From Kamptonema formosum PCC 10802 (GTDB lineage: Bacteria; Cyanobacteriota; Cyanobacteriia; Cyanobacteriales; Oscillatoriaceae), in the NCBI RefSeq assembly GCF_000332335.1, contig NZ_KB235948.1:5605720-5654660 (forward strand): DNA of 48,941 nt, written 5' to 3'. Below are positions 23,501 through 41,640 of this stretch, one piece after another. Made by a program: the position numbers and the translations under genes. Every line of letters begins with the position of its first letter. The first letter of the stretch is position 1. The notes under the pieces were generated by a model. That model was given only the letters and a program-made list of their open reading frames with translations, did not search any database and had not been told where the DNA came from.

Positions 23501-24392
23501 GATTGCCGGCGTTGCTGTTGGTGGGTGTGCCGGTGAAGGTGCCGGTTGCGGAGTTAAAGCTCAACCAGCTGGGTAGAGGAGAACCGTTCGCCAGAGTTGC
23601 CGAATAGGTGAGGGTGTCACCGGCATCCACATCAGTGAAAGTGTTGCTGGCTAACTGGTAGCTGAAAGCAGAACCGGCGGTTGTGGTTTGGTTAGAGATG
23701 GCATTGGCTACTGTTGGCGCTTCATTAACATTAGTGAGGGTAATTGTAAAGGGTTTCCACGAACTGATTTTGTTGGGAGTCCCGCTATCCGTGGCTTGCA
23801 GGAAGATATTGTAACTGCTGAGTGTCTCAAAGTCGAACAGGCTGCCATTGGCAACTTTTAGCTTGTTGCCGTCAATCGTGAAGCGCCCGCCAACGGTATC
23901 GTAGAGTTTGTAGGTGTGGGTGTCTGCTTTGTTGAGGTCAATAGCAGACAGGTCGGCAATAACCGTGCCGGTGGGGCTGTTTTCGGCGATGCTGTTCTTG
24001 CTGAGAGTAATATCGGTGGGTGCGTGGTTGTATGGACTGACGGTAATGTTAAAGGTGGTGGGGCTAATGTTGCCCCCCTTGCCATCAGTGGCGGTGAAGC
24101 TAAAGCTGTCGCTGGTGCTTTTGGTGCCGTCGTGGGTGTAGGTGAGCCGGTTACTGTCAATGTCAGCTTGAGTGAAAGTTTTGTTGCCACTCAAGTTGAG
24201 CGCAGTACCGTTGAGCTTGAGGGTGCCGTGCGCCGGCAAAGCCGTCAGGGTGTAAGTAATCGCATCGCCGTCAGCATCTTCTGTTCTGAGGAGGCTGTTA
24301 GGAATGGTGGCGTTATTGCCTTCATCCAGGTTTAAGTTCTTGTTGCTGTAAAGAATCGGGTCTGTGTTGGGGGGTAAGTTACTGGCTGGCAT
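20595..24392 (-). CDS. Large cadherin/Ig-repeat protein with RTX calcium-binding C-terminus
   Basis: 1265 residues with no N-terminal signal peptide. Order: Cadherin-like tandem repeat at about 15-115; cadherin domain (APTDITLSKNSIAENSPTG); Ig-like He_PIG domain (PSWLSFNSATGTFTGTP); second cadherin; second and a divergent third Ig-like domain; an EF-hand pair (DANKNGVQDAGE, DTNQNGSLDPEE); an alanine/glutamine-rich helical region; then two RTX nonapeptide blocks (GGAGSDTIIG, GGAGDDLLNSGLGNDTLIGG). This plan fits a calcium-dependent extracellular or surface adhesin exported by a type I system through its C-terminus. No ABC exporter is nearby. The two cadherin-Ig units are recent DNA duplications. 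The adhesin role is inferred. Confidence 0.9.
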   Translation of the reverse strand: MPASNLPPNTDPILYSNKNLNLDEGNNATIPNSLLRTEDADGDAITYTLTALPAHGTLKLNGTALNLSGNKTFTQADIDSNRLTYTHDGTKSTSDSFSFTATDGKGGNISPTTFNITVSPYNHAPTDITLSKNSIAENSPTGTVIADLSAIDLNKADTHTYKLYDTVGGRFTIDGNKLKVANGSLFDFETLSSYNIFLQATDSGTPNKISSWKPFTITLTNVNEAPTVANAISNQTTTAGSAFSYQLASNTFTDVDAGDTLTYSATLANGSPLPSWLSFNSATGTFTGTPTNSNAGNLSLQVRATDKAGASASTPFNLTVNPGVNYAPTDITLSKNSIAENSPTGTVIGNLSAIDPDSNDSHTYTLLNNAGGRFSIDGNKLKVANGSLLNFESATSHTIRVRTTDIGGKTFEKDLTLGVTNVNEAPTVSSAIPTQTTGFGNAFSYQLASNTFTDVDAGDTLTYSATLANGSPLPSWLSFNPATRTFSGTPTVANANAGNLSLKVSATDKAGASASTPFNLGVINHAPVLKNPLFLQGVQWTKNYHLKKSGKFTFASNTFTDSDPGDSLTYTANWVHGFNWNWQNVSGWTNSPVLLSAAQKTPLPNTIQFDSATRTFTISPALRGDIWIEVKAIDKAGATAKDLFHIYNVGRGLGIDNYISGGTAFFDANKNGVQDAGEPFATTTENGEFDIDINFDTFDTNQNGSLDPEEGRIVVTGGTDVATGLPLATPITALPDSFVVTMLTSVVADLVDRGLTPDEAQTKLKSALSLPADLDLAILDPVAATNSNEPGGAQVFSAMIKAQNTVTQIVSLLDGASSASVSQLTQAAVGAIATQIQTDQPLDLSGAATLDKLIREAATKAQQIDPNLNLQAVLSAATQAAQIMAESNQSIDKAAANNTGSNITKEVARAQVITLGEITKDLQEVTAGTKTIEQAVAENTGAALDSQILAAKPAAGQTLTGTAENDTLYGSARNDSIDGGAGSDTIIGLFDSDTITGGRGNDVFVIRRGDGADIITDFAGVGRGGNPSQATIAAADILQFDGAGLTASNMLLTQNGADLTVSFEGVPDTSVTLKNFALENLDNILKSTGSDADLGNILFDGETENQDGFDVINSELPFNRTIYQENTTTFLNDLNNFTHGFDNSSDTINGQGGNDTLSGLSGDDVLRGGAGDDLLNSGLGNDTLIGGSGRDLFSLGKNNGSETITDFEDGTDLMALRKGFQFSELSITSGSTGTNICLASTGEVLMFLQGVESNLIGAQDFTPVW

Positions 24393-25455: not shown

Positions 25456-27645
25456 ATGGCTTTAGGAATTGAAGATCGGGAGCGCAAATTTATCACCACG
25501 GAGCCGGTGGGCTCAACTGCGAACGGTTCGGCTCAGAAAGTTTGGGATGCTGTCCGCAGCGCCTTTGCTGACAGGAATTGTGTCGGCTACTGGCGCTATC
25601 CCATTTTTGCGAAAGCGGGAGAGATGAGCAAGGAGCCTGACATCCTCATTGCCGATAAAGAGCTGGGGGTGATAGTCATTGAGGTCAGCGGTGTCACGAT
25701 TGACCAAATTGCGGAAATAAACGGCGATCAGTGGAAATTTAAAAACGCTGAAAAACAGGCGGAAAACCCCGCCCAACATGGGAAAAACCAGCTTTTGGCC
25801 TTGCTGGCAAACTGCGACCGCGAACCGGCAATCTGGCGCAAAGTCACCGGGCGATCGCTGGTGGCGCTACCGCTAGTGACAGAGGAACAGTGGAAGCAAA
25901 AAGGCTTTGATAAATTGCCTAACTGTCCGCCGGTTATCTTCCAAGAGCAACTGGGGAAAGCCGGCTTGCTGGAGCGCATTCAAAAAGCTGCTCCAGCCGT
26001 TGCGGGAGAAACCCTGAATGACGAGCAGTGGGGGGTGCTGGGTTCTGCGATTGGGGGAGCGCCGGTGCTGAAAAAACCTCCGAGAAACGCAGATTCTACC
26101 AGCAGCAAAAGCCGCTCTGGCGTCATGGCGAGTTTGGAGAAACAGCTGTCTGAGTTAGATTTTCACCAAGAGCATATCGGGAAAGAAATCCCTCCGGGAC
26201 CTCAGCGAATTCGCGGCATTGCCGGTTCGGGAAAAACTGTGCTCCTCTGCCAGAAAGCCGCTCACATGCACCTGAAACACCCCGACTGGGATATTGCTCT
26301 GGTGTTTTTCACTCGCACACTCTATGATTTGATCGCCGGCTTGCTGGACAGGTGGGTGCGCCGGTTTAGCAGCGGTGACGTTCAGTACGACCCAAAAACT
26401 AACCCGAAGTTGCGAGTGCTTCACGCCTGGGGCGCTAGCGACCAGCCCGGTTTCTATGGGACGATTTGCGAGTCCCACGGCATCCGCCGGCGAACGGTTC
26501 GGGACACATCGGAAAGACTGCCTAACCGGGGACTGGCAGACCTCTGCAAGCGCCTGCTGGAAGAAATAAAAATTGAACCGCTCTTTGATGCGATTTTAAT
26601 TGATGAAGGGCAAGATTTAGTAGCGGAAGATGATTTAAAATTTGAGGACAAACAAGCGATTTACTGGCTGGCGTATCAGGCTCTGCGACCGGCTGACCCG
26701 CAAAATACAGAGGAGCGGCGCTTGATTTGGGCTTACGACGAAGCGCAAAGTTTAGATAGCTTGGCAGTGCCAAAGGCAAAGGAGGTATTCGGCGAGAAAT
26801 TGAGCAATCTCTTGAGCAAGCAACCGCAATACCCCGGCGGGATAAAACGGTCGGAAGTGATTCGCCGGTGCTACCGCACTCCGGGTCCGATTCTCACCGC
26901 CGCTCACGCTATTGGCATGGGATTGCTGCGCCCAGACGGAATGCTCGCCGGCATCACCAATCAAAAAGCTTGGAAAGAAATCGGCTACGAAGTTTTGGGA
27001 AATGGCAAGTTTATTTCTGGCCGGCAAATTACCCTGCAGCGTCCGGCAGAAAACTCACCGAATCCGATTCCGCAGCTTTGGGGGAAAGAGGTGTTGGAGT
27101 TTAAAACATACAATTCCCGTCAGGCAGAAATGACAGCTCTGGCTGAGAACATCACCCACAACCTCCTAGATGACGGTTTTAAACCCAGCCGGGATATTTT
27201 GGTGGTCGTTTTAGGCTCTATTGCTGACGCACCCGAATTAGAAACTCAGGTGGCTGGGTTCTTGATAGAACAGGGCATTGATGTTTATATTCCGACGGCT
27301 TTGCAGCTGAACGACCCGCTCCCTGAATGGCCAAACAATAACCCGGATAAATTCTGGCACGATGGCGGCGTTACCGTATCTCGCATTAACCGGGCAAAAG
27401 GGCATGAGGCTGATATGGTGTATGTCGTGGGGTTCGATCATGTCGCTCGCAATGAGGATAATGTGAATCTCCGCAACCAGCTGTTTGTGGCTTTAACGAG
27501 GGCGCGGGGATGGGCGGCACTCAGTGGCATTGGCAGCTATCCCATGTATGAGGAAATGCGCAAAGTGATAGCGAGTGGGGACACTTTTACCTTTACCTAC
27601 AAGCGCCCGCCGAAGCGCGATATCGCTGAGGGAGAAGGGATTTAG
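25456..27645 (+). CDS. NERD-domain superfamily 1 (UvrD-like) helicase
   Basis: 729 residues. Residues about 25-115 form a NERD nuclease-related domain (EPDILIADKELGVIVIEVSG), with D62 and E76 conserved but Ser78 where the family usually has Lys. The helicase follows: Walker A GIAGSGKT at 254-261, VFFTRTLYD, the Walker B-type DEGQD at 383-387, WAYDEAQSL, CYRTPGPI, INRAKGHEADMVYVVGF and motif VI LFVALTRARGW. It should be an ATP-driven DNA translocase; nuclease activity is uncertain. NERD-helicases are often found in phage-defence settings (known for the class, not shown here). It converges on a paralogous helicase, separated by a palindrome. Confidence 0.92.
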   Translation: MALGIEDRERKFITTEPVGSTANGSAQKVWDAVRSAFADRNCVGYWRYPIFAKAGEMSKEPDILIADKELGVIVIEVSGVTIDQIAEINGDQWKFKNAEKQAENPAQHGKNQLLALLANCDREPAIWRKVTGRSLVALPLVTEEQWKQKGFDKLPNCPPVIFQEQLGKAGLLERIQKAAPAVAGETLNDEQWGVLGSAIGGAPVLKKPPRNADSTSSKSRSGVMASLEKQLSELDFHQEHIGKEIPPGPQRIRGIAGSGKTVLLCQKAAHMHLKHPDWDIALVFFTRTLYDLIAGLLDRWVRRFSSGDVQYDPKTNPKLRVLHAWGASDQPGFYGTICESHGIRRRTVRDTSERLPNRGLADLCKRLLEEIKIEPLFDAILIDEGQDLVAEDDLKFEDKQAIYWLAYQALRPADPQNTEERRLIWAYDEAQSLDSLAVPKAKEVFGEKLSNLLSKQPQYPGGIKRSEVIRRCYRTPGPILTAAHAIGMGLLRPDGMLAGITNQKAWKEIGYEVLGNGKFISGRQITLQRPAENSPNPIPQLWGKEVLEFKTYNSRQAEMTALAENITHNLLDDGFKPSRDILVVVLGSIADAPELETQVAGFLIEQGIDVYIPTALQLNDPLPEWPNNNPDKFWHDGGVTVSRINRAKGHEADMVYVVGFDHVARNEDNVNLRNQLFVALTRARGWAALSGIGSYPMYEEMRKVIASGDTFTFTYKRPPKRDIAEGEGI

Positions 27646-27654
27646 TTTGGTGTC

Positions 27655-27687
27655 AGAAACCGGGTTTCTTCCAGAAACCCGGTTTCT
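27655..27687. repeat. AGAAACCCGGTTTCT-family inverted repeat between convergent helicases
   Basis: AGAAACCGGGTTTCT-TCC-AGAAACCCGGTTTCT, perfect 15-bp arms, 9 nt after one stop codon and 9 nt before the other. It is positioned to act as a bidirectional transcript end although it lacks a T-run. Confidence 0.9.
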
Positions 27688-27696
27688 ACACTCAAT

Positions 27697-29214
27697 TTAA
27701 CCCTGCCGTTCACTGGTGACTCTTTTAAGTGATTTCTGATTAAACGCAGTGAAAATCAAATTTGGGTACTGAGATTTAGCGGTTCGCAGCTCATCAAAAA
27801 TTGGGTCTTCCAGTCCTGTTACCGCACACCAAATCCGGCTGCGAGTCAGGGCAACAAATGCCTCATTTCGCTTGCGCAGTTCTGCCTCATCGCGCTCGCG
27901 AGTCTCGCTATCTGGACTTACAATGGGGCGAGTAACGTTATGGAATCTGCAAGCATAGACTTTATAAGCTTCATTGCCTTTCGCACTGTGGATGCCGCAT
28001 AGTGTCACGCACCCCTCAATCCGAAAAATATCAGGGTTGCCATCCACACCGGCAATGAAACTGCTGACTCCGCGACTGCTGAGCGCTGCTTTAAGCCGTT
28101 CAAAATAACTCGCGGTTCCCTTGCCCTTTATCGCCGTAATCAGGATGTGTTCTGGGTGTAAACCGCGCTTGATATCGGTAGCAACTGCCTCAGCAACCCA
28201 CTCTATCTCCTCAGACTCATCGCTGAAAGTTTCAATAATTAGCAACTCACCGGCAGCTTCGCGCAGATCAGCTTTTAGGTCTGTGGGGTGAGGGCTAAAT
28301 TTATCGGGGCGCGTGATTTTTACCGGCTTTCCCGCTTTAACGCTAGCATCGGTAAAGTCGCCTTCCAGAACTTCATACCCCAAATTCGCCCAATCTTTTT
28401 TATCAGTCACTCCCTGCAACGCCCCTTGTTTGCGGAACAGTCCCATATTCACCGCATGTGCAGCCATCAGCAGCTGTTTCGGAGTGCGGTAGCAAACGTT
28501 GAGATTCTTGGCAGAACCTCTTAAATCTACCGCCAGTGTTCCATCAGGTTTCAGCCCAAATATCTCTGTAGCTGTCGGCACTATTAAGGAGCCAATCCCT
28601 TGCGCCTCATCGTAAGCCCAGTAAAGCCGCTTCGCTTCAGATAGGGTTTTCCACGCTAATCGGTAAAACGAGGCTGGCAAGTCTTGCCCCTCATCAATTA
28701 AAATCGCATCGTAGAGGACGGGTATAGTGGGGACTTCTTCCTCCAGCCGGTTGCAGACATATTCAAATGCCTCCCCAGGGGAAATGTTCCGTTTTAGGTG
28801 CTGCAGCTCTCTTTCCACATCCTTGACACTCAGTGGCTTTTTGCCACACGCAAGTGCTAGATTGCGGTAGAAGCCATTGAGCTGGCTTGAACCCCAAGCG
28901 TGGAAAACATTAATTATATCCCAGTTTGGCTCCTCATCCGTTTTCTTAAGGTATTCTTTCTCAATCCGCTCTCGAATCTGTTCGTAAAGAGATTGCGTGA
29001 AGAAAACGAAAGCGACTTTCCATTCTGGATGGCTGGCGTGTATTTTGGCGAGCCGTTTTGCCAGTAAAATAGTTTTGCCCGTGCCGGCAATTCCGCGAAT
29101 GCGCTGAGGAGCGCTGGGAATTTGACTGGCAATCGGGCGCTGCTCTTCATCTAGTTTTTCCAGCTGCTCTTGGAGAGAAAGAATTACTTTCAGTGGGTTG
29201 GGCAGAGATTCCAT
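27697..29214 (-). CDS. Superfamily 1 helicase without NERD domain, paralogue of its neighbour
   Basis: 505 residues. It aligns by eye with the helicase part of the neighbouring gene: EEQRPIASQIPSAPQRIRGIAGTGKT (Walker A 41-48), FVFFTQSLYEQI, HAWGSSQLNGFY, ILIDEGQDL (174-178), YWAYDEAQGIGSL, VCYRTPKQLLMAAH and motif VI AFVALTRSRIW. It starts directly at the helicase core and has no nuclease-like region. ATP-dependent translocation on DNA is expected; the biological role is unknown. The convergent pair may have arisen by duplication with loss or gain of the NERD part, or both may have been acquired together. Confidence 0.9.
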   Translation of the reverse strand: MESLPNPLKVILSLQEQLEKLDEEQRPIASQIPSAPQRIRGIAGTGKTILLAKRLAKIHASHPEWKVAFVFFTQSLYEQIRERIEKEYLKKTDEEPNWDIINVFHAWGSSQLNGFYRNLALACGKKPLSVKDVERELQHLKRNISPGEAFEYVCNRLEEEVPTIPVLYDAILIDEGQDLPASFYRLAWKTLSEAKRLYWAYDEAQGIGSLIVPTATEIFGLKPDGTLAVDLRGSAKNLNVCYRTPKQLLMAAHAVNMGLFRKQGALQGVTDKKDWANLGYEVLEGDFTDASVKAGKPVKITRPDKFSPHPTDLKADLREAAGELLIIETFSDESEEIEWVAEAVATDIKRGLHPEHILITAIKGKGTASYFERLKAALSSRGVSSFIAGVDGNPDIFRIEGCVTLCGIHSAKGNEAYKVYACRFHNVTRPIVSPDSETRERDEAELRKRNEAFVALTRSRIWCAVTGLEDPIFDELRTAKSQYPNLIFTAFNQKSLKRVTSERQG

Positions 29215-32571: not shown

Positions 32572-32573
32572 CC

Positions 32574-32602
32574 GGTGGGGCGGACAAGTGTCCCGCCCCA
32601 CC
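32574..32602. terminator. Hairpin between convergent ald and COP23 genes
   Basis: GGTGGGGCGG and CCGCCCCACC form a perfect 10-bp GC-rich stem with a 9-nt loop, 2 nt after the ald stop and 6 nt before the end of the COP23 gene. No T-run; a shared transcript end is likely. Confidence 0.65.
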
Positions 32603-32607
32603 TGGAT

Positions 32608-33123
32608 TTACTCAACCGGCGCATTTTTCAGGAAATTTCTCATATTCACAACAGGAGCGCCGGCTCTTATGCCCCCTAAAACCGGGCCCGCAGCAGCATC
32701 CCCGCGAGCAATCTGTCGCAGCTGTTCCAGCAGGCGAGTGGCGTCGTCTCCCGGTTTGAGGGTGAACAATAGCGCACAGTCCTCAGTGTGCGTGCTGCTT
32801 CTCAAGGCGCAGAGAACCGGCTGACCGTTTTGACGACCGGCGCTCAGATAATTTAGCCTTCCAGCACTGTAGAGTTGTTGGAATCGTTCCGACACCTCCT
32901 GACAGCGCTGTTCCGGGTTCCAGCCCGAGCCGGTGAAATACTCAGAAATCCACTTAATCACAGAAACTCGCCCTCGCGAGGTAACAGCGAAAGTTGTGGG
33001 AATACCGCTGAGGTCTTTATCGCAGACGAAAGTTGTGCTGTTAGGGGGATTAGCGACAGTCGAATCACAGCCTAATAGAATGCCTGCTGCTGTTAGAGTG
33101 GATGCCAGTAATTTCAGTTTCAT
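32608..33123 (-). CDS. COP23-domain lipoprotein
   Basis: 171 residues. The N-terminal hydrophobic stretch ends in a lipobox (ILLGC, Cys19), suggesting export and lipid anchoring. From residue 31 the pattern FVCDKDLSGIPTTFAVTSRGRVSVIKW, GWNPEQRCQEVSERFQQLY and PVLCAL matches the cyanobacterial COP23 family, named after a circadian-oscillating membrane polypeptide of a Synechococcus strain. Its cysteines (about 33, 74, 105, 116) may form disulfides. The molecular function is unknown. It converges on ald. Confidence 0.85.
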   Translation of the reverse strand: MKLKLLASTLTAAGILLGCDSTVANPPNSTTFVCDKDLSGIPTTFAVTSRGRVSVIKWISEYFTGSGWNPEQRCQEVSERFQQLYSAGRLNYLSAGRQNGQPVLCALRSSTHTEDCALLFTLKPGDDATRLLEQLRQIARGDAAAGPVLGGIRAGAPVVNMRNFLKNAPVE

Positions 33124-33155
33124 AGCTCTGAAGTTTTTTGTAATTCTACCATGTT

Positions 33156-33221
33156 AGTAGTTGGGCTTTAGCCCCTGTTTGTAGTTGGGCTTTAGCCCCT
33201 GTTTGTAGTTGGGCTTTAGCC
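33156..33221. repeat. 24-bp tandem repeat, about 2.7 copies
   Basis: AGTTGGGCTTTAGCCCCTGTTTGT units, the same GGGCTTTAGCCC core as in the 27-bp array at 25117-25327. It lies next to a shortened MITE-like copy. Confidence 0.9.
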
Positions 33222-33223
33222 TG

Positions 33224-33291
33224 AGAAACCCGGTTTCTTTAAGAAACCGGGTTTCTGGGCAAACACGTTCATCCAACTGAGAACCGCTATA
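33224..33291. mobile_element. MITE-like element, shortened copy 2
   Basis: The AGAAACCCGGTTTCT palindrome (33224-33256) and the outer end TTCATCCAACTGAGAACCGCTATA are present; the other outer end is missing or replaced by the 24-bp array. The element ends at 33291, directly against the dynamin A stop codon (33292-33294). Confidence 0.8.
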
Positions 33292-35295
33292 TCAAGGCAT
33301 AGCCACCTGAGCGATCAGTGCGTCCAGATCGCTGTCGAGCGCGTTGACTGAGCGAGCCAGGGCGTCCAGCTGGCGCAGTTTTTGGTCAACATTAACCTGA
33401 CCTTTTTGCTTTTCCTCCAAGATAGAATTAACCTGATCCCGAACGCTTTGGATTTCTTTAGCGAGTCCCATATCTACAGCGTTCTGGAGCTGGGATAGCT
33501 TCTCAGCAACGGCATTGGCAATCTCGGCGGATCGGTCAGCATTCGACTGGCGGAGATGCTCGGCGTATTTCTGAGCGAATGCCTTCTTAATCTGCTCATT
33601 TGTCGATTTAACTCGGATCAGCCCGTCCACAAAACCCCCACCCACCATCACTGGAACTAAGATCCAAGGATTGACGGCACCAACCACCAATATAGTTGCT
33701 GTAGCGAGAGCGATTTGCTGCACGAGACTTACTAGCATTGCTTTAAACCCGAATACCCCGCCGATAGTAGCTGTCACGAAGTTTCCCAAAAGATAGCCGC
33801 CGGCTATAGCGAGTATTCGCTCAATGGGAGACATATTACCCATATTAGTTTGCAGCGGAATAGAAGTACCTGAAACTTGTAAGCGCAGGTTATCTAACTG
33901 AGACAAAAACATACTTGCTCTGGTATCGATATCGCGTTTTAGGTCTTCTAAACGCCCGCTGAGGAATGGCTCTAGCTCGGACTTCTGCCACGCCGCAAAC
34001 TCCCCCTCTACCTGGCCCGATATATGCTCCGTCAATTCTTTAATTACTCTTTCGATTGCGCCTTTCAGTTTCAAAGCGTCTTGCAGCGTCACCGGCTCTT
34101 TAATTTTATACTCGCTCACCCACTTGGCAATTTTACTGTCGTATTGGTCGATTTTGACGTCATAAAGTGTGCGATAAAAAGAGCGAGCTTTGTCACTGAC
34201 GTGCAGCTGCATGTCCGCCCGAAAGTTAGAGACTTTGGCGACTATCTGGTGGCGCAGCGTTTCCAACTGTTGCAGCGGACCTTGGGCGTCTGCATATAGG
34301 GTTTCCAACGTTGTGATATCGGTGCGCAGCATCGCCTCCCGCTGCGGGATAATTCCCCGTGCTTCCCGAATGGCATTTTTCAGTTCCATTGCCGGTCGGA
34401 TAATCTTCATCCGCCCCCGCTCACTGGCCAGGAATTTCTCAAGTTCCTTTTCTAAATGCGGCACACCCGATTGCTCTACTTCAGCAGCATTCCCGCTGGT
34501 ACGCCCCTTTAAAGCACCTAAGGCGTTGATGAAAAACACTCGCTCAGCACCCCTTGCGGTGCGGGGTGCTAGTTTCGAGAGTCCGTGCTGCTTGATATCC
34601 TCTCGCTCATCCGCGTCAATCATGTTGAAGCGATTGCAAATAAAAAAGATGTCTTCGTGACCCATACTCCTGAGGGTGTTGTCGATCACATCTATTTCCG
34701 ACTGGGAGCCAAGAACCTCGCAGGAAAGAACAAACAGTATCGCATCGACAGTTGACAAGTAATCCATCGTCACTTTCTGGCGAATCGCATGCTCGTTTAG
34801 CCCCGGAGAATCAATAATCTCCACATTATTGCGGCAAATTTCCAAAGGCCATAACAGTTCCACTTTCTCGTAAGGGCTGCCATTGATTGCTTCGCTCTCG
34901 CTGACGCCATCTTGAATCACCACATAGTTTTGTATCTCCTCAACGGGAATCTCCAAGGACGGCTGTAACGGGCCACTCTCGGACTGGATAAAATGCAGTA
35001 ATGCCCGCCGGGGTTGGCCCCATTTCACCTCGTTGATAATGGCAGTGCAGGGTTTGGCATAAGCCGGTAAAACTCTTTCCCCCAGCAGGGCATTGATAAA
35101 GGTGCTTTTGCCTCGCTTGAACTCTCCAAGCACAAGCACTTTGAAGTTTTCCGCACGGATGCGCTCTTCTAATCGCTGCAGGGTTTCTTCCCACCCTTTC
35201 ATGCTCAGCGAGCGCACGGCTGCTTCTAGCCGCTGAATGATGTTTAGCAGTTTGTCGCGCTTTTTCTGGAAGTCTTGATATTGCTGGTTTGCCAT
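33292..35295 (-). CDS. Dynamin-like GTPase A
   Basis: 667 residues from ATG 35295; an earlier in-frame ATG at 35355 adds 20 residues of low-complexity sequence and is less likely. GTPase motifs: P-loop GEFKRGKS (57-64), G3 DSPG (162-165), and NRFN (221-224) where TKxD is usual. Long helical regions flank a hydrophobic, glycine-rich segment at about 493-560 that may act as a membrane paddle or paired transmembrane helices, as in bacterial dynamins such as Nostoc BDLP. It should bind and remodel membranes with GTP. It is the last gene of the peptidase-dynamin B-dynamin A run, 137 nt after dynamin B. Confidence 0.9.
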   Translation of the reverse strand: MANQQYQDFQKKRDKLLNIIQRLEAAVRSLSMKGWEETLQRLEERIRAENFKVLVLGEFKRGKSTFINALLGERVLPAYAKPCTAIINEVKWGQPRRALLHFIQSESGPLQPSLEIPVEEIQNYVVIQDGVSESEAINGSPYEKVELLWPLEICRNNVEIIDSPGLNEHAIRQKVTMDYLSTVDAILFVLSCEVLGSQSEIDVIDNTLRSMGHEDIFFICNRFNMIDADEREDIKQHGLSKLAPRTARGAERVFFINALGALKGRTSGNAAEVEQSGVPHLEKELEKFLASERGRMKIIRPAMELKNAIREARGIIPQREAMLRTDITTLETLYADAQGPLQQLETLRHQIVAKVSNFRADMQLHVSDKARSFYRTLYDVKIDQYDSKIAKWVSEYKIKEPVTLQDALKLKGAIERVIKELTEHISGQVEGEFAAWQKSELEPFLSGRLEDLKRDIDTRASMFLSQLDNLRLQVSGTSIPLQTNMGNMSPIERILAIAGGYLLGNFVTATIGGVFGFKAMLVSLVQQIALATATILVVGAVNPWILVPVMVGGGFVDGLIRVKSTNEQIKKAFAQKYAEHLRQSNADRSAEIANAVAEKLSQLQNAVDMGLAKEIQSVRDQVNSILEEKQKGQVNVDQKLRQLDALARSVNALDSDLDALIAQVAMP

Positions 35296-35432
35296 AACAG
35301 TTTTGCGGGTTTGGTTTGGAGGGTTTTGTTTTGCGGTTGTTTGCCGGCGGCTCACTCACCGGCACAAGGGGCGAGAGGCTGTGCGCCTCTCCTGGTAACG
35401 TGGCAAGGATTTCCTCGCTAGGGCGAAAAATC

Positions 35433-37964
35433 TTATGATTGCAAAGCCGCAAGAATCTCCTGTCTCAAATCAGTAGCTCCTTGAATCAATTGCTGCCAGA
35501 CTCTATCATCCGAGCCGGTGCCGGCTGTCTGAAAGGCTGCATTCTTAGTATACTGCCAAATGGATTCCTCCCGTTTCGTGTCTTCCCCTAATTGGGAATA
35601 TAGCTGGCGCACCCGCAAGGATATCTGAGTGCAGTATTCGTCGAGGGCTTTCCCCACAGTGCGCTCTAATTCTTCGGATAAAAGCCGTCGCTGCGCTTCT
35701 ACTTCTTTGTTGATGATTTGCTCGCCTAAGAGCCAGACGCCGGTGCTGAGCACAATGCCAACTGGCCCGCTCAAAACATACCCGCAAATTGTAGCGGCGC
35801 TGCTGCCCAGTCGGGTGAAAACACGATACTGGTGAGTGTTGGAGAGATTAATTTGCCGAAACTCTGGCCGGATTTCTGCTCTTTCTTGGTTTGGGGCGGC
35901 TTTCTTTTGTATTTGGGTGGCAAATGTCCGGTTAATTTCTCCCTGAAGCCACTCAAAGTCCTCAGCTAAAGCCTTCAGCAACAAGTTTTCCAATTGGCGG
36001 CTGAGAGCCATTAACTCGCGCCGCATCTGGAAAGGCAAGTCCCGCTCCCACCAAGTCTTTGGTTCTGGTGCCCTGCTCAGCTCAAAAGCCAGTCTCTCCA
36101 CCAAATCTTGTTTTGATTCCACAATTTTCAGCCGCAACTGGCGTTCGCGCAGCAGTCGCCGCCGCTCCAGTTCCAGTCGCAGTTGCTCCCACTCCAGCTG
36201 TGCGGTGCGCAACTCTTCTTTTGCTTGGCGCAAAGCTCGCTCTCGCTCGGCGGCGCTCATTCGCGCTACAGCAATCGCCCCTTCCCCCACTTCTACCATC
36301 TGGTTCAGTCTATCGGCGAGCTGTGCCGCTATTTGCCGGCTGCGCCACGCCCGCCGGTCGCCTTTTGCCACCATCGCGGCAATCTGACTCCGCACCCTTG
36401 ACAGCGCTTCCTCTTCTGTGGTAAGGGCATCCGCTGGGTGAGCCGGCAAAATCGGTATGGCTGGGGAAATTTTACCCACACGCTGGCGAATGGCACTGAG
36501 CACGCTTTCTCGCTCTTCAAGACCAATAATGTCCAGTTTGGACACAGCGGCCACAATGCGGGGAACGTGTCGCCCCATGACTTCTTGCTCCAAAAAGGCG
36601 GCTTCCGTCATGCTGAAAGGCAGAGTGGCGCTGACCAGCAGTACCGCGGCGTCGCACTGACTGAGCAAGTCGAACACCAGCGCCGCCCGACGCCCATTCA
36701 AATCACCGGCACCCGGAGTGTCAATCACCTCGGCGTCGAGCTCCCGCAGCCACGGACTGTCCAGGGCTATCCGCACTGCCGCCAGCACTTCCCGGTCACT
36801 CCCGGCGCGGTCAGTGGCCAGCAAGTCGTCCCATGAGGACTCCTGCAGCGGTCGCACTTCCTGGCGCTGTTTGGAAAAAGTGACTTCCATCCGCTCTGGC
36901 GTCCCAGCTATGATAGAGGTCAGGGTTGCCGTAGTTGGGGGCGCAGCCACCGGCAGCAGTTCCCGACTCAAGAGCCGGTTGATCAAAAAACTTTTGCCGC
37001 GACTGAACTCCCCGAGAAACGCCAGCCGAAACCCGGGCGTGCGCTGTCTGGCTTCCAGTGCTTGCAGCTGAGCAATTATATCGCCTCTCAATCCCCCCTG
37101 CTGGGCGGGGGCGGGGGGGATTGATTCTGCCAGCTGCAAACACCGGCGCAGCCAAGGCCCAGTCTGCAGCTCCTGTGGGGGCGCAACGCTTGCGCTCAGG
37201 TCAGCTGCCTCTGCCGGTGTTGCTGTTCCATCCCCCACAGACGAGTTATCGGAGGGCGCACTGTCCTGATTGGGCAAGTGGGACTCCCTCAAACTCCCCC
37301 TCCCCACCTGCGGGGAGGGGGTTGGGGGGTGGGGTTCTTGATCGTTTTCTGGCACCGGCATCCCCTCAGTTTCCGGGGGAGAAGGCAGCGCGGCAGCCGG
37401 CGCATCTGGGCGCAGCCACTCCCTGCACGAGGGAATCAGCGCCCAGTAATAAGGATAGACCTCAGCCGGCAGGAGTCCAGCGTAGTGACCGGCCAGACTG
37501 GCCAAACCGGCACTGCCGCCACCACTCCCTGAAAGGAACTCATCCAGGGCGCGAAACAGGGCATTTTCCCTCCGGGTGCGCTCCACCGGATTCAGCGTCA
37601 CATTTTTATCCGCAGGGCGTGCGGTAAAAGTCTCGCACTCGCGAAGGGATGCGATTTCCTCTCGCAACCGCAAGTCAGTGGTTTGCGCCAGCTTCTGTCC
37701 TGGCCATGTCCACTCCACCGCACCCCACGGGGCCATATATCCATCGGAACCGTCATCCAGCTTTGTGGGGATAGCAATCGGCGAGACAATCCCCCACTTC
37801 GCCCCCCGCTTCACCGGCACGGGTGCCAGTGCCACCGACTCCAGAGTCACCCACTCGCGCACTCCCGGCATCCGGTGGATGCCGCGAGGTAAAGCCCCGA
37901 TGCCGGTTGGCTTGCCGGCAGATTGAGCAGACAGTTGCCGCAGCTTTTCTCTATCAATAGCCAT
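35433..37964 (-). CDS. Dynamin-like GTPase B with a long N-terminal extension
   Basis: 843 residues. The first 180 residues form an unrecognised domain (GIHRMPGVREWVTLES, YMAPWGAVEWTWPGQ), then a Pro/Glu/Ser-rich linker (about 185-270) partly made of repeat DNA, then the GTPase: P-loop GEFSRGKS (318-325), G3 DTPG (415-418), G4 SKLD (475-478). A helical region rich in E/R/Q (about 560-620) and a hydrophobic segment SSAATICGYVLSGPVGIVLSTGVWLL precede the C-terminal helices. It is likely a partner of dynamin A, since bacterial dynamins often occur and work in adjacent pairs. It follows the peptidase gene by 68 nt. Confidence 0.9.
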   Translation of the reverse strand: MAIDREKLRQLSAQSAGKPTGIGALPRGIHRMPGVREWVTLESVALAPVPVKRGAKWGIVSPIAIPTKLDDGSDGYMAPWGAVEWTWPGQKLAQTTDLRLREEIASLRECETFTARPADKNVTLNPVERTRRENALFRALDEFLSGSGGGSAGLASLAGHYAGLLPAEVYPYYWALIPSCREWLRPDAPAAALPSPPETEGMPVPENDQEPHPPTPSPQVGRGSLRESHLPNQDSAPSDNSSVGDGTATPAEAADLSASVAPPQELQTGPWLRRCLQLAESIPPAPAQQGGLRGDIIAQLQALEARQRTPGFRLAFLGEFSRGKSFLINRLLSRELLPVAAPPTTATLTSIIAGTPERMEVTFSKQRQEVRPLQESSWDDLLATDRAGSDREVLAAVRIALDSPWLRELDAEVIDTPGAGDLNGRRAALVFDLLSQCDAAVLLVSATLPFSMTEAAFLEQEVMGRHVPRIVAAVSKLDIIGLEERESVLSAIRQRVGKISPAIPILPAHPADALTTEEEALSRVRSQIAAMVAKGDRRAWRSRQIAAQLADRLNQMVEVGEGAIAVARMSAAERERALRQAKEELRTAQLEWEQLRLELERRRLLRERQLRLKIVESKQDLVERLAFELSRAPEPKTWWERDLPFQMRRELMALSRQLENLLLKALAEDFEWLQGEINRTFATQIQKKAAPNQERAEIRPEFRQINLSNTHQYRVFTRLGSSAATICGYVLSGPVGIVLSTGVWLLGEQIINKEVEAQRRLLSEELERTVGKALDEYCTQISLRVRQLYSQLGEDTKREESIWQYTKNAAFQTAGTGSDDRVWQQLIQGATDLRQEILAALQS
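37287..37337. repeat. C-rich/G-rich palindrome inside the dynamin B coding sequence
   Basis: CCCCCTCCCC-ACCTGC-GGGGAGGGGG followed by TTGGGGGGTGGGGTTC, the same element found between genes at 24540-24592 and elsewhere. It is in frame and encodes about residues 210-226 (PHPPTPSPQVGRGS) of the linker without a stop. Confidence 0.85.
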
Positions 37965-38032
37965 AACTATTTTTCCCCTGTTATTGGTTATCGGTTGCCG
38001 GTCAAAAGCAAAGAGCCATTTTTACGCCATTT

Positions 38033-38866
38033 TTACGCCCACACCGGCTGATCGGGCGCGTCCGCAACCACCAACAAGTTGCCGTAATCCTGCCAAGCAT
38101 TGAGAAAATCCGCCGCATCCACTGCCTTCATCCGACCGTCAGGCGTGCCGCTATCATTAAGGATAATCTGCACTGAACCGTCCGGCTGTTGGTCGATGCC
38201 TGTAACCCAAACTGCATGACCCCCATTCGACTGTTCAACTGGAGAACCCGTCGCCGGATCTCTAATTGGAGTCCAGATTTCGTTAGCGTCCAGGGCCACA
38301 ATCACCTTGTCGCCTCGCTCCAGGGCTGTAGCAATATCCTCAAGATTTGCCTCGTAACGTTGCTCTGTCGGGATACCCAGCGCTTCCAAAAGTTTTCCCA
38401 CGTTGTCTGGGTATGTTCCGATTTCTGGGTCAAACCAGCCATTTTCCTCGGCTATCTGGCACGCTTCCGCTTCCGAGATATCCTCTCCCGTAATTGACTC
38501 GTAGACGCCGATCTGCGCCACCACCGCACAGGAGTTCTGGCCATCCTGCAGCTGCCAGCAATCGGCGTCCTCAATGGGATTTCCCCAACCCTCAAATCGA
38601 TCCGGTTCCCAGCAGGCATCTGGCGCGTACTCCCAGCCGGTGTCCCACAAGAAGCCCAAGTTGCTGACATCTGGATCGGCTTCGTATCCCTCAGCGGTTT
38701 CGTCACCGGCAGGAGTCTCCCTCTGCAAACTGTAGTCCCAATCACTCTTTTCCTCCACCGGCACCAAATCCCATTCAGGGAGAGTCTCTACCGTCTGGTC
38801 TTCTCCTGCGGCATCATATTCGGGACTGAGCCAGTCGTCAAGCGTTGAAAAGATGTCGTCAAACAT
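38033..38866 (-). CDS. C39-like cysteine peptidase domain protein
   Basis: 277 residues, very acidic, no signal peptide. The N-terminal 100 residues are low-complexity and rich in D, E and W (WDTGWEYAPDACWEPD). The papain-like C39 core follows: Q107/Q110 and catalytic-type C113 (QDGQNSCAVVAQ), TGEDISEAEACQIAEENGW, DVGKLLEALGIP, H217 (NGGHAVWVTGID) and N237/D238 (ILNDSGTPDGR). The triad appears intact, so it is probably an active cytosolic protease; no ABC transporter domain is attached, so it is not a bacteriocin exporter. It is the first gene of the run with dynamins B and A (68 nt), which suggests it acts on or with them. This link is inferred. Confidence 0.8.
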   Translation of the reverse strand: MFDDIFSTLDDWLSPEYDAAGEDQTVETLPEWDLVPVEEKSDWDYSLQRETPAGDETAEGYEADPDVSNLGFLWDTGWEYAPDACWEPDRFEGWGNPIEDADCWQLQDGQNSCAVVAQIGVYESITGEDISEAEACQIAEENGWFDPEIGTYPDNVGKLLEALGIPTEQRYEANLEDIATALERGDKVIVALDANEIWTPIRDPATGSPVEQSNGGHAVWVTGIDQQPDGSVQIILNDSGTPDGRMKAVDAADFLNAWQDYGNLLVVADAPDQPVWA

Positions 38867-39285
38867 AGTTCCCCTTTGGGTTTTTAGCTGGCTGTTTCTC
38901 TATTGGGCTAGAACCGGAAAATTATGCGTGATTGGGCTGGGGGCGATAGGGCGTGCGGCTTTCGGGCATTGGACATGGGCTGTCAATTGCCGGCACTCCC
39001 CGACTTTATATTTTCTATCACATCTTTTTTTCAATACATTCTCTCGCAAATAATCTTTACAATGCATTTAGCCCGACGCGCCTCAAACCGTGCTATTGAA
39101 ACCTGCCGGCGAGGGCTGAAGCGGTAACAAACCGGGTTTCTTTGCTCCTATCCAAACCAGCCCGGTTTCTGGTATTGCCAGACCGGCGCTCTAAAAGGTG
39201 AGATTGTGGTTTCTGGCAATTTCCCCCTTGACAAACTTCCCTTTCTCTCCTATAATATCATGTCCCGTAGCACCGTTGCGCGAGG

Positions 39286-39347
39286 GAGGGGCGGGTTTAT
39301 TCATATTCTGCTCTGTGCCAAAAATATCTTGGCAGAACCCGCCCCTA
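39286..39347. repeat. GGGGCGGGTT-type inverted-repeat element, copy 3, nested
   Basis: GGGGCGGGTT (left) and AACCCGCCCC (right). It lies inside a second inverted repeat, ATATCATGTCC at 39255-39265 and GGACATGATAT at 39378-39388 (perfect 11 bp), as though one element inserted into another. Confidence 0.85.
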
Positions 39348-39387
39348 CAAGGGTATGTGCACACAACCCATGCAAGCGGACATGATA

Positions 39388-39484
39388 TATAGCGGCTCTC
39401 AGTTGGATGAACTATGGCCCAGAAACCCGGTTTCTTAAAGAAACCGGGTTTCTCTGTACCTCACAAAGGATGAGAAACGCTATA
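39388..39484. mobile_element. MITE-like element, copy 3 (full length)
   Basis: 97 bp with imperfect terminal inverted repeats TATAGCGGCTCTCA and TGAGAAACGCTATA and a central perfect palindrome with AGAAACCCGGTTTCT arms (39421-39453). It ends 2 nt before the dynamin C stop codon (39487-39489) and shares TATA with the preceding inverted repeat. Confidence 0.88.
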
Positions 39485-39486
39485 AT

Positions 39487-41418
39487 TTATCCCGCCAGTC
39501 TTTCCTGCTGTGCGGATAGAGACTTTTGCCGGCGCTCTAATTCGGAGAGAGTTGCTTGCGCTGACTCTTGCCACTGATTTAAACGCTGCAATTCTGTTTT
39601 CTGCTCGTCTAGCATCGCGTCAACGATTGCCTGATACCGCGCCACATGAGCGTCAATTTGCTGCTGGAGCGCACAAGCAACCCCCCGCTCGCACGTTCGC
39701 ACGGATTCCTGAGCTTGTGTCTTAGCGCTGTCAAAGTAGGCATCCAAGCTGGGGTGCAAATTCTCCCAAATTTTCTGCTTGCGCACATCAAGGGACATAA
39801 AAAAAACCGCCGCAACTCCCCCCAGAAAACCGCCAATGAGAATTCCCACTCCGGGCAATATCATGTTGCCTATCACCGCACCGGCAGTCATCCCACCCAC
39901 TGCGATGTTGCCATCTTTACTGTCTAATTCTTTGTTCACTGACTCGGCAGAAGAAAATACATCCTCTACATTCAGTTCCATTTTTGTCTCAATCTCTGCC
40001 TCCGGTTCGAGAAAGCCTGTAATACTTTGCAGCCGGCGGTAGGCATCGGAAAACTTCTGTTTGAATAAAATTTCGGCTTCTTTGCCGGTGCCGGACAGTA
40101 ACTCGGCTGATTCTTGAAGCTTCTGGCGGAGCGACTGCTGGCCGGTGTTGAGTATCGATTGGGCTTCTGTTTCCACAAACTTTTTAAGCGATTGTTCGTC
40201 AGCGGCGTCAAAGATAGCTTTCTGTATTTGCGAGACAGTTGTTTCTCGCTGAGACTCCACGCACTGAACTATCTCCGCCATTGAACTTGAGAGAGCGTCT
40301 GAAAGCATTTGCCGGCAGATGGCGTGCTGTTCGGCGGCGAAGGAAGGCAAATCCGGGATAGTTTCGCGTTTAATCGCTGCTTGGCGAGTCTCATATTCCT
40401 GCCACATATCCCGCAGCTGCGTCTCCAGCTGCTCAAAGAGTCGTGTCAGCAGGCGCAGCAAGCTTTCGGCAATGCTGAGGGTGCGCTCTTGGCGGAGGCG
40501 ATTGATAATAACGCTCTCCAATTTAGAAAATCGGTCTTTCCAAATGAGGCTGTGTTGCGGGATTTCCTCGGTGCCGGTTAAACTGTCTGCCATCACCTGA
40601 GCGGCACAAGCGTACAGCATGGGTGGTTTGATGTTCAACCCAGCGACAAGGCGGGAGCGCAGATTAGTCAGAAGTCCGCTGACTTCTTCGGGCGGGATCT
40701 GATCCATGCGCGTCACGACAAAAATGCAGCGGTGCAGGTAGGGGCGCAGTGAGCCGGCGAGAAAGTTTGTCATGGTTTGGGACAGGGGCACCGTTGCCGG
40801 TATAATAATCGCAGCGGCGTCGGCTTCATTTTCCACCACTTGTCGGGTAATCGCGCCGTGTTGCGGGTTGGTGGCGTTGGTTCCCGGCGTGTCAATGATC
40901 ACAATACCATTGGCCAGAAATGCTGCAGGGTGAGTGACTGTCACGCTCACAACGTCTTTCGCGACTTCCTCGTTGGAGGTGACTAGGCGGATGAACTGCC
41001 GGTTGTCAATTCCGCTCACTCCGGGCAGCCAGGGAATGGTAATATTGGTGCTGTTGGGATTGGTTTTGACGGTGCCCGGTCGAGATCCGGCCAAACGCAC
41101 TTCCACTTGCAAGGCATCGCCGTAACGCAGTCGGGTTGCTGCTGCAGTGGCGACGAGGGCTGAGGTTCTCAGCAAATTATCGCGCAGCAAGGCATTGATG
41201 AAGGTGCTCTTGCCGCTGGAAAATTCTCCAATCGCCGCCAGGTAAAGATTGGGATCGGCGCGGCGCTGTTTGATGCGCTCGATGTGCTGGCGGCACTCTG
41301 TGGCTGCCGGTTCGGGAATCTCTGAGCGGTTGATGACTTCCAGGGCAAACTGCAAGTGTTCGTCGCATCCCGTCAAGGCTTCCAGTAAGTCCGTGCTGTC
41401 CTGTGCGGTTGCTGCCAT
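39487..41418 (-). CDS. Dynamin-like GTPase C
   Basis: 643 residues. P-loop GEFSSGKS (64-71), G3 DTPG (176-179) and a complete G4 TRMD (236-239), so the GTP site is canonical. A long helical middle part and a glycine-rich hydrophobic hairpin (GGMTAGAVIGNMILPGVGILIGGFLGGVAAVFF, about 505-540) suggest membrane insertion. The C-terminus is coiled coil (LNQWQESAQATLSELERRQ). It is only distantly similar to A and B, chiefly around the P-loop. It lies upstream of the peptidase operon on the same strand but a 620-nt repeat-filled gap suggests a separate transcript. Confidence 0.9.
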   Translation of the reverse strand: MAATAQDSTDLLEALTGCDEHLQFALEVINRSEIPEPAATECRQHIERIKQRRADPNLYLAAIGEFSSGKSTFINALLRDNLLRTSALVATAAATRLRYGDALQVEVRLAGSRPGTVKTNPNSTNITIPWLPGVSGIDNRQFIRLVTSNEEVAKDVVSVTVTHPAAFLANGIVIIDTPGTNATNPQHGAITRQVVENEADAAAIIIPATVPLSQTMTNFLAGSLRPYLHRCIFVVTRMDQIPPEEVSGLLTNLRSRLVAGLNIKPPMLYACAAQVMADSLTGTEEIPQHSLIWKDRFSKLESVIINRLRQERTLSIAESLLRLLTRLFEQLETQLRDMWQEYETRQAAIKRETIPDLPSFAAEQHAICRQMLSDALSSSMAEIVQCVESQRETTVSQIQKAIFDAADEQSLKKFVETEAQSILNTGQQSLRQKLQESAELLSGTGKEAEILFKQKFSDAYRRLQSITGFLEPEAEIETKMELNVEDVFSSAESVNKELDSKDGNIAVGGMTAGAVIGNMILPGVGILIGGFLGGVAAVFFMSLDVRKQKIWENLHPSLDAYFDSAKTQAQESVRTCERGVACALQQQIDAHVARYQAIVDAMLDEQKTELQRLNQWQESAQATLSELERRQKSLSAQQERLAG

Positions 41419-41605
41419 TTTGGCCTTCCGGTGGGTTTTGAAAAAAGGGTGAGGGGGACTCCTCGTTTCTGTCTGGAATTCGCACCCGATTTTGGCTGTC
41501 AGTATATCTTCTAGCAGCGGAAGCTGTCACTAATTTCTTAACAATTTTTTACTGTTGAGCTTGTGGGGTGCGCTTTTGCGCTCCCACGGGCTGTTGCTAG
41601 CTCCC

Positions 41606-41640
41606 AAAAAAAAGCGTTCCCGGGCGAGGGCGCGGGAACG
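41606..41640 (-). terminator. Terminator of topA
   Basis: On the minus strand CGTTCCCG and CGGGAACG form a perfect 8-bp stem, followed by GC and a run of eight T. It lies 34 nt after the topA stop. A classical rho-independent form. Confidence 0.85.

What the first reader, a model, noticed from the sequence alone, without database searches (positions are those of the whole stretch)
33292..41418. Three unlike dynamin-like GTPases with a C39-like protease: a candidate membrane-remodelling or defence module
Dynamin C, then a C39-type cysteine peptidase, dynamin B and dynamin A all lie on one strand within 8.1 kb; the last three are 68-137 nt apart. Seen in sequence: three P-loops (GEFSSGKS, GEFSRGKS, GEFKRGKS), DxPG switches, glycine-rich hydrophobic segments, and an intact C113/H217/N237 peptidase core without signal peptide. 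Known: bacterial dynamins often work as adjacent pairs (e.g. Campylobacter and Streptomyces pairs, LeoA systems) and B. subtilis DynA protects membranes during phage attack. Inferred: a protease in the operon could switch the GTPases on by cleavage after a trigger. I know of no described system with this exact set.
Basis: partly seen in the sequence, partly recalled or inferred. Interest (0 to 1): 0.82.

Follow-up and report, generated by a model that had tools for sequence, protein, structure and literature searches.

The report
Conserved peptidase plus three dynamins operon
A cyanobacterium carries a four-gene set, one papain-type peptidase and three different dynamin-like GTPases, that keeps the same gene order in distant bacteria and looks like a real but undescribed membrane-remodelling machine.

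Summary
In detail: DynC, peptidase, DynB and DynA lie on the minus strand at 33292-41418, all intact. The functional link also holds. The order DynC-Pep-DynB-DynA recurs in 7 genomes, two of them from the phylum of an Acidobacteria MAG (27-51% protein identity to the window). A rearranged version occurs in a third group. In 386 genomes of the window's phylum, the 6 with a long DynB match (E<=1e-100) all have the peptidase, or in one its fragment, beside it. The four gene trees largely agree. A same-genus genome lacks the whole 9.0-kb block as one piece. DynB's N-terminal domain is a free-standing gene between peptidase and dynamin elsewhere. A second form pairs the same peptidase family with two other dynamins and Hsp70. 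Six of 21 inspected genomes have the peptidase without a visible dynamin. What it does is untested: regulated membrane repair or remodelling, switched by cleavage of a module protein, is my best guess. Defence is possible, but nothing around the window shows it. Ten literature searches found no description of the set.

The parts
39487..41418 (-). DynC, dynamin-like GTPase, 643 aa, first gene of the module
   Evidence: ORF; Dynamin_N 90.6 bits; GEFSSGKS, DTPG, TRMD aligned in 8 orthologues
38033..38866 (-). Papain-fold (C39-like) peptidase, 277 aa; disordered acidic N-terminus (about residues 1-111), catalytic core about 107-272
   Evidence: first 90 aa have 27 acidic and 3 basic residues
38528..38530 (-). 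Catalytic Cys113 codon
   Evidence: Invariant in 13 of 13 aligned homologues
38216..38218 (-). Catalytic His217 codon
   Evidence: Invariant in 13 of 13 aligned homologues
38153..38155 (-).
   Evidence: D238 invariant in 13 of 13, N237 is K or S in two; Asp aligned in 3ERV
35433..37964 (-). DynB, dynamin-like GTPase, 843 aa, with an extra N-terminal domain
37407..37964 (-). N180 domain of DynB (residues 1-186), homologous to a free-standing ~180-aa protein encoded between peptidase and dynamin in other genomes
   Evidence: hhalign E 9.1e-6, probability 83, 155 columns, alignments of 3 and 4 rows; alignment
37032..37406 (-). Low-complexity linker of DynB between N180 and GTPase (59-127 aa in 9 orthologues), candidate cleavage region (inference)
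   Evidence: dN/dS 0.67 against 0.26 for N180, window against L010
33292..35295 (-). DynA, BDLP-like dynamin, 667 aa from the ATG at 35295 (GTG at 35355 also in frame)
   Evidence: Dynamin_N 91.1 bits, bacterial helical domain 80.7 bits; Nostoc BDLP1 2j68, E 4.7e-39
38867..39486 (.). 620-nt gap between DynC and peptidase; 39480-39387 and 39388-39251 are dispersed repeats. The gap is about 22-62 nt in five other genomes (G999, G1024, G960, G768, G298) and about as long in the near relative L010
   Evidence: spacings
32572..41606 (.). Block of about 9.0 kb absent as one piece from a same-genus genome (G296), where about 225 bp stand between the alanine-dehydrogenase-type gene and topA
   Evidence: blastn of the window against L116, flanks 92-93% identical

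Best explanation
It is a four-gene module that is kept, gained and lost as a unit: a probably cytosolic papain-fold peptidase and three non-redundant dynamin-like GTPases (A, B, C). Shown by sequence: unity of the module, orthology of the parts, intact GTPase and peptidase motifs, and the N180 domain being fused to DynB here and separate elsewhere. Inferred: the dynamins assemble together on a membrane to tether, seal or reshape it under stress; the peptidase is held inactive, perhaps by its acidic disordered N-terminus, and when triggered cuts a module protein, most likely DynB in the loose linker between N180 and the GTPase, to switch assembly on or off.
For: Order DynC-Pep-DynB-DynA in G000, G300, G298, G768, G999, G1024 and G960. 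A, B and C form clean best-hit groups across cyanobacteria, the Acidobacteria-titled MAG and its phylum-mate, and G299. Trees of all four genes recover (G298,G768) and (G999,G1024). Converse test: 6 of 386 phylum genomes have a long DynB match at E<=1e-100, and the peptidase or (G971) its fragment is adjacent in 6 of 6. Whole block absent in G296. N180 fusion. Purifying selection against the near relative L010: dN/dS 0.27 DynC, 0.36 DynB, 0.22 the 300 residues of DynA available, 0.51 peptidase (core 0.32), topA control 0.21; 0.67 in the DynB linker and 0.78 in the peptidase N-terminus, on few sites. Catalytic residues kept. Model: papain-fold core, residues 1-111 below pLDDT 50.
Against: No substrate, trigger or membrane activity was tested. 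The peptidase model is middling (mean pLDDT 53, core about 70). The N180 model is poor with no PDB match. Peptidase without a visible dynamin: G037, G207, G005, G008, G1042 and G301 (frameshifted, at a contig end), 6 of 21 genomes; those of G037 and G207 are 57-60% identical to the window's, so the peptidase may work without the dynamins. G1129 has Pep-DynB with two other dynamins and no DynC seen. G768 DynB has lost the G2 threonines and has DTPS for DTPG. The acidic N-terminus is not general: it is absent in G306 and weak in G399, as far as their starts are right. The linker shows no conserved site that would mark a cut. L011 and L013 are MAG contigs.
Confidence: 0.45

Rival explanations
1. 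The dynamins are the switch and the peptidase is the effector: GTP-driven assembly on a damaged or invaded membrane activates the peptidase, which cuts host or phage proteins (a conflict or abortive-infection system).
For: The second form combines the peptidase and N180 with Hsp70, with GrpE in G229 and a DO-GTPase on the Anabaena plasmid. DO-GTPase systems with HSP70 and GrpE are described as conflict systems, in some of which proteolysis may release effectors (PMC7159879, passages). Patchy presence, decayed copies in G118 and G971, remnant in G178. Plasmid carriage in Anabaena and Rhodococcus.
Against: PADLOC over 32 flanking proteins gave helicase-type models and, for one member each, PD-T4-6, mad6, MkoA and other kinase-like models (first 25 of 40 families shown); L077 holds a protein kinase, so this is generic. 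No PADLOC match for the peptidase. No Hsp70 or DO-GTPase among the window ORFs scanned.
Confidence: 0.25
2. Housekeeping of cell or thylakoid membranes under environmental stress: the dynamins repair or remodel membranes and the peptidase merely removes damaged or misassembled dynamin complexes.
For: DynA resembles Nostoc BDLP1. Flanks in the window are housekeeping genes. Papers propose membrane repair for a cyanobacterial dynamin (PMC9950537, PMC10104851, passages).
Against: Sparse: 13 of 386 phylum genomes have any peptidase-profile match and 6 a long DynB match; a same-genus genome does without it. Also found in groups that are presumably not photosynthetic.
Confidence: 0.2
3. The papain-fold protein is not an endopeptidase but an acyl transferase or amidase acting on a small molecule, peptidoglycan or a lipid-linked substrate beside the membrane.
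Against: 12 of 12 cores match Peptidase_C39_2; no signal peptide by eye, so a wall substrate is unlikely.
Confidence: 0.15
4. The peptidase is a chance or hitchhiking neighbour of the dynamins.
For: Peptidase without a visible dynamin in 6 of 21 inspected genomes.
Against: Same order in 7 genomes from two phyla, converse test 6 of 6, near-congruent trees, a second pairing with other dynamins.
Confidence: 0.02

Closest known systems
Cyanobacterial BDLP clades (Tandem A/B with Nostoc BDLP1, HSR1, KGK and chaperone/DnaK clades; PMC5827413, section 7 read)
   Same: Multi-dynamin gene clusters in cyanobacteria; DynA aligns with Nostoc BDLP1; the published chaperone clade already links a dynamin to DnaK, as in this module's second form
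   Different: 'Peptidase' and 'protease' do not occur in that paper's main text (its supplement was not read); three orthologous dynamins plus peptidase is not among its clades as described
LeoA/LeoB/LeoC of E. coli (PMC4159319, passages)
   Same: Three adjacent dynamin-type genes proposed to work together
   Different: LeoB and LeoC are described as one dynamin split in two; no peptidase partner in the passages seen; NCBIfam LeoA model 15.9 bits against a 325 cut-off for DynA
Campylobacter Cj-DLP1/2 and other paired bacterial dynamins (PMC6104087, passages); IniA/IniC (PMC6715688, search listing)
   Same: Heterotypic dynamin pairs in one operon
   Different: Pairs, not triples; the reported Campylobacter operon partner is an HcpA-like beta-lactamase; relation of the second form's DynX/DynY to IniA/IniC was not tested
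DO-GTPase/Hsp70/GrpE conflict systems (PMC7159879, passages)
   Same: Loci of the second form carry Hsp70, and GrpE (G229) or a DO-GTPase (Anabaena plasmid)
   Different: The word dynamin does not occur in that paper's main text; the window has none of those partners among the ORFs scanned
Mitochondrial OPA1/OMA1 and animal calpain in membrane repair (recalled, no call)
   Same: A protease that regulates or accompanies membrane-fusion or repair proteins
   Different: Other hosts, and for OMA1 another protease family; analogy only

Membership tests
Bacterial dynamin-like proteins | Dynamin_N GTPase domain with G1 and G3 motifs | tested here: met
   91.1, 67.1, 90.6 bits against 27; motifs aligned in orthologues
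Bacterial dynamin-like proteins | Helical trunk of the BDLP type | tested here: inconclusive
   PF21808 met by DynA (80.7 bits against 28.3) and not listed for DynB or DynC
Bacterial dynamin-like proteins | GTPase and membrane remodelling activity | not testable with these tools
   None
Peptidase_C39_2 / papain-like clan | Profile match over Pfam's curated cut-off | tested here: not met
   Window protein 22.4 bits, core alone 23.8, cut-off 24; 12 of 12 cores match at E<=0.01
Peptidase_C39_2 / papain-like clan | Papain fold with Q, C, H, D/N in order | tested here: met
Peptidase_C39_2 / papain-like clan | Proteolytic activity | not testable with these tools
   None
LeoA/LeoBC dynamins | NCBIfam LeoA/HP0731 cut-off | tested here: not met
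   15.9 bits (DynA) and 14.1 (DynC) against 325; PADLOC LeoA E 4e-23 and 3e-21, without a curated cut-off
Known anti-phage defence system | Match of the whole gene set to a described system | tested here: not met
   No PADLOC match for the peptidase at E 0.1; the dynamins match LeoA/LeoB/LeoBC/LeoC-type models and, for DynA, PbeC at 0.0012
Known anti-phage defence system | Protects against phage | not testable with these tools
   None
DO-GTPase/Hsp70 conflict systems | DO-GTPase or Hsp70 in the locus | tested here: not met
   For the window: none among the larger ORFs scanned. Hsp70 met in the second form, DO-GTPase there on the Anabaena plasmid

The most novel reading that the evidence does not exclude
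A bacterial calpain-like membrane repair system: calcium entering through a ruptured membrane is sensed by the peptidase's N-terminus, which carries DxDGDG calcium-loop-like motifs in 5 of 20 homologues examined (15 residues apart in four of them; at most 0.024 expected per shuffled protein), though not in the window's own protein; the freed peptidase cuts the N180-DynB linker and starts a three-dynamin membrane-sealing assembly.
Probability: 0.1. Interest if true: 0.88.

Novelty: new variant of a known kind. Interest (0 to 1): 0.62.

Why it matters
Bacterial dynamins have few known regulators, and how heterotypic sets are switched is an open question. A peptidase that travels with three orthologous dynamins across phyla, and with two other dynamins plus Hsp70 in a second form, gives a direct test: does cleavage control dynamin assembly in bacteria, as it does for some eukaryotic fusion dynamins (recalled)? 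It also names a free-standing domain, N180, fused to one partner, as the place to look first.

Tried and rejected
Phage carriage: no match of the peptidase in 50,697 phage records; 28 stretches of viral contigs matched a pattern of profile A2 and none was confirmed. DynB has no plasmid match at 1e-10; DynA has four plasmid matches at E<=1e-20, at 22-31% identity.

Defence island: PADLOC over 32 flanking proteins of six loci (window, L013, L077, L078, L080, L081) gave helicase-type models and, each for one or two members, PD-T4-6, mad6, MkoA, C3a187 and C3a189 (first 25 of 40 families shown; which member matched is not told). L077's neighbour is a protein kinase. I judged this generic.

Transposon reading of the 9.0-kb block: my script printed no direct or inverted exact repeat of 10 nt or more between its two ends; no mobility gene was seen among its ORFs.

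Missing gene in the 620-nt gap: rejected, much of it is dispersed repeats.

N180 fold: model too weak (mean pLDDT 56.8) and best PDB match E 0.18; a missing match says nothing about novelty of the fold.

Rows dropped: 15 genomes with weak peptidase-profile matches (E 9e-15 to 6e-4: seven, four, four) and the weaker second matches in G399 and G306 were not inspected; nor were 22 of the 28 plasmid records. G297 and G300 appear to be one genome (same size, contig number and position) and are counted once; L018 and L019 are near-identical copies at the two ends of one G118 contig, counted once. The trees used 7 taxa; G300, whose DynA is cut by the contig end, was left out. For the loci 'no dynamin' means no blastp match at 1e-4 to the window's dynamins within about 9-10 kb on each side; in G301 only one side could be seen.

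Papers: PMC5827413 section 7 read in full and passages elsewhere; PMC6104087, PMC9950537, PMC4159319, PMC10104851 and PMC7159879 passages only; all others only in search listings. No supplement was read. The statement that the set is undescribed rests on the ten searches in an open-licence library.

Full report
WHAT IS THERE. The window is part of an 8.59-Mb cyanobacterial assembly (G000:C3:5605720-5654660); a peptidase 93% identical lies in a MAG titled Oscillatoria sp. Prado101. On the minus strand the gene order is DynC 41418-39487, peptidase 38866-38033, DynB 37964-35433, DynA 35355 or more likely 35295 to 33292. All three GTPases pass Pfam's Dynamin_N cut-off. DynA matches Nostoc BDLP1 (2j68) at E 4.7e-39 over residues 52-674. 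The peptidase is a marginal Peptidase_C39_2 match (22.4 against 24 bits); its relatives support it: 12 of 12 family cores match at E<=0.01. The other larger window ORFs scanned are mostly housekeeping (topA, ndhB, pdxA, NAD kinase, IGPS, EPSP synthase and so on).

IS THE LINK REAL. A single-sequence search found the peptidase in 8 of 291 genomes of the class and in 2 of 8 genomes of the family. The profile A2 found matches in 13 of 386 genomes of the phylum, 10 of 296 of the phylum of G299 and 6 of 297 of the phylum of G298; 15 of these 29 genome rows are weak (E 9e-15 or worse) and were not followed. I read the neighbourhoods of 21 genomes. Seven have DynC-Pep-DynB-DynA in that order: G000, G300, G298 (MAG titled uncultured Acidobacteria), G768 (same phylum as G298), G999, G1024, G960. 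G1129 has Pep-DynB and two other dynamins. G299 (MAG titled Clostridium sp., label unchecked) has Pep-N180-DynB-DynA-DynC. G118 and G971 hold decayed copies. G229 and G141 have Pep, N180, two other dynamins and Hsp70 genes, with GrpE in G229. G399 and G306 have Pep with dynamins of that second type. Six show no dynamin: G037, G207, G005, G008, G1042 and G301, the last with a frameshifted peptidase at a contig end. That is 15 of 21 with a dynamin. Six plasmid records were read of 28 matched (one Anabaena, five Rhodococcus); all six have an annotated Hsp70 gene within 12 kb and either an annotated dynamin or, in L040, a GTPase over the Dynamin_N cut-off.

CONVERSE TEST. Searching the 386 phylum genomes with DynB, nine match at 1e-15; six of them (G000, G1024, G999, G1129, G960, G971) have a long match at E<=1e-100, and in all six the peptidase or, in G971, its fragment is adjacent. 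Of the other three, G178 has a 90-residue remnant with nothing else of the module found within about 10 kb, and G1138 and G245 match only through the GTPase domain at about 30%. Conversely, of the eight genomes in that set with a peptidase match at E<=1e-30, five have DynB beside it.

ORTHOLOGY AND CO-EVOLUTION. All-against-all BLAST separates A, B and C cleanly; each A, B and C protein has its best match in its own group. Identities to the window in the two genomes of the Acidobacteria-titled phylum are 27-51%. Quick trees of A, B, C and peptidase for seven genomes all recover (G298,G768) and (G999,G1024) and keep the cyanobacteria together, though that branch has support of only 38 in the peptidase tree, and the place of the window relative to G960 differs between trees.

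ROSETTA FUSION. The first 186 residues of DynB align with a free-standing protein of about 180 residues encoded between peptidase and dynamin in G299, G229, G141 and the Anabaena plasmid: hhalign E 9.1e-6 over 155 columns, probability 83, a single comparison of shallow alignments. The linker that follows is 59-127 residues in nine orthologues and low in complexity; the window's copy has a repeat-like insert that the near relative lacks. Between window and L010 the linker has dN/dS 0.67, N180 0.26 and the rest 0.34.

PRESENCE AND ABSENCE. G296, of the same genus and 99% complete, lacks the peptidase and any close DynB. Aligning it to the window shows 92-93% identical flanks on both sides and about 225 bp in place of 9.0 kb (window 32572-41606), which holds the four genes and a COP23-type gene. 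In G293, another genus of the family, the interval holds two other genes (tyrosinase-like by my reading). The interval is therefore variable; whether the module was gained or lost is open.

MECHANISM. Shown: a unit of one intact papain-fold enzyme and three intact, distinct dynamins, under purifying selection, present or absent as a block. Inferred from established dynamin knowledge: heterotypic assembly on membranes (most bacterial dynamins are reported as side-by-side pairs, PMC6104087 passages). Inferred, weaker: the peptidase cuts a module protein; the DynB linker is the best candidate because N180 is free elsewhere and the linker is loose. Speculative: the trigger. In 5 of 20 homologues the peptidase N-terminus has DxDGDG motifs, which suggests calcium, but the window's protein has none. 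Defence is a live rival because the second form sits with Hsp70, GrpE and a DO-GTPase, but nothing in the window's surroundings points to it.

COMPARISON. A 2018 survey of cyanobacterial dynamins already described clusters with DnaK and tandem dynamins (PMC5827413, section 7); 'peptidase' and 'protease' do not occur in its main text. Ten full-text searches found no description of the set; closed papers were not searched. I file it as a new variant of the bacterial multi-dynamin operon.

LIMITS. ORF starts in the comparisons are the first possible start codons, so N-terminal lengths are approximate. Weak matches and most plasmid records were not inspected. Actinomycetota could not be sampled beyond plasmids.

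Noticed in passing
38867-39486: The gap between DynC and the peptidase is largely two dispersed repeat families with many copies in the genome, one palindromic (AGAAACCCGGTTTCTT); pieces like them also lie in the empty site of G296.
   Followed up: partly
39228-39256 (+): A perfect 12 of 12 sigma-70-like promoter consensus lies at the edge of one repeat, on the strand opposite to the module; may be chance or carried by the repeat.
   Followed up: no
G000:C3:366089-370870 (L087): A second run of three dynamins in the same genome, of a different type; no match to the peptidase in the 20 kb read.
   Followed up: partly
L039 5577-16927: Anabaena sp. 90 plasmid pANA01 carries Hsp70, a DO-GTPase-type protein, the peptidase, free N180 and two dynamins in one run, 5 kb from a CHAT-domain gene.
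   Followed up: partly
L042, L108, L109: Rhodococcus plasmids carry a conserved run: dynamin, GTPase, Hsp70, unknown, C39 peptidase, unknown, sigma-70-type factor.
   Followed up: no
L016 7777-9000, 6621-7853: A sigma-70 region 4 protein and a DUF1822 protein lie beside the second-form module in G229.
   Followed up: no
32608-33123 (-): A COP23 (circadian oscillating protein) gene lies inside the same variable block as the module; only one of 32 flanking proteins scanned matched COP23.
   Followed up: no
L077 1-1932: A protein kinase gene lies downstream of the module in G768, three genes on.
   Followed up: no
25456-29214: Two helicase-like genes related to STM2767 on opposite strands.
   Followed up: no
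20595-24392 (-): A 1265-aa protein with tandem-95 and RTX-type repeat matches.
   Followed up: no
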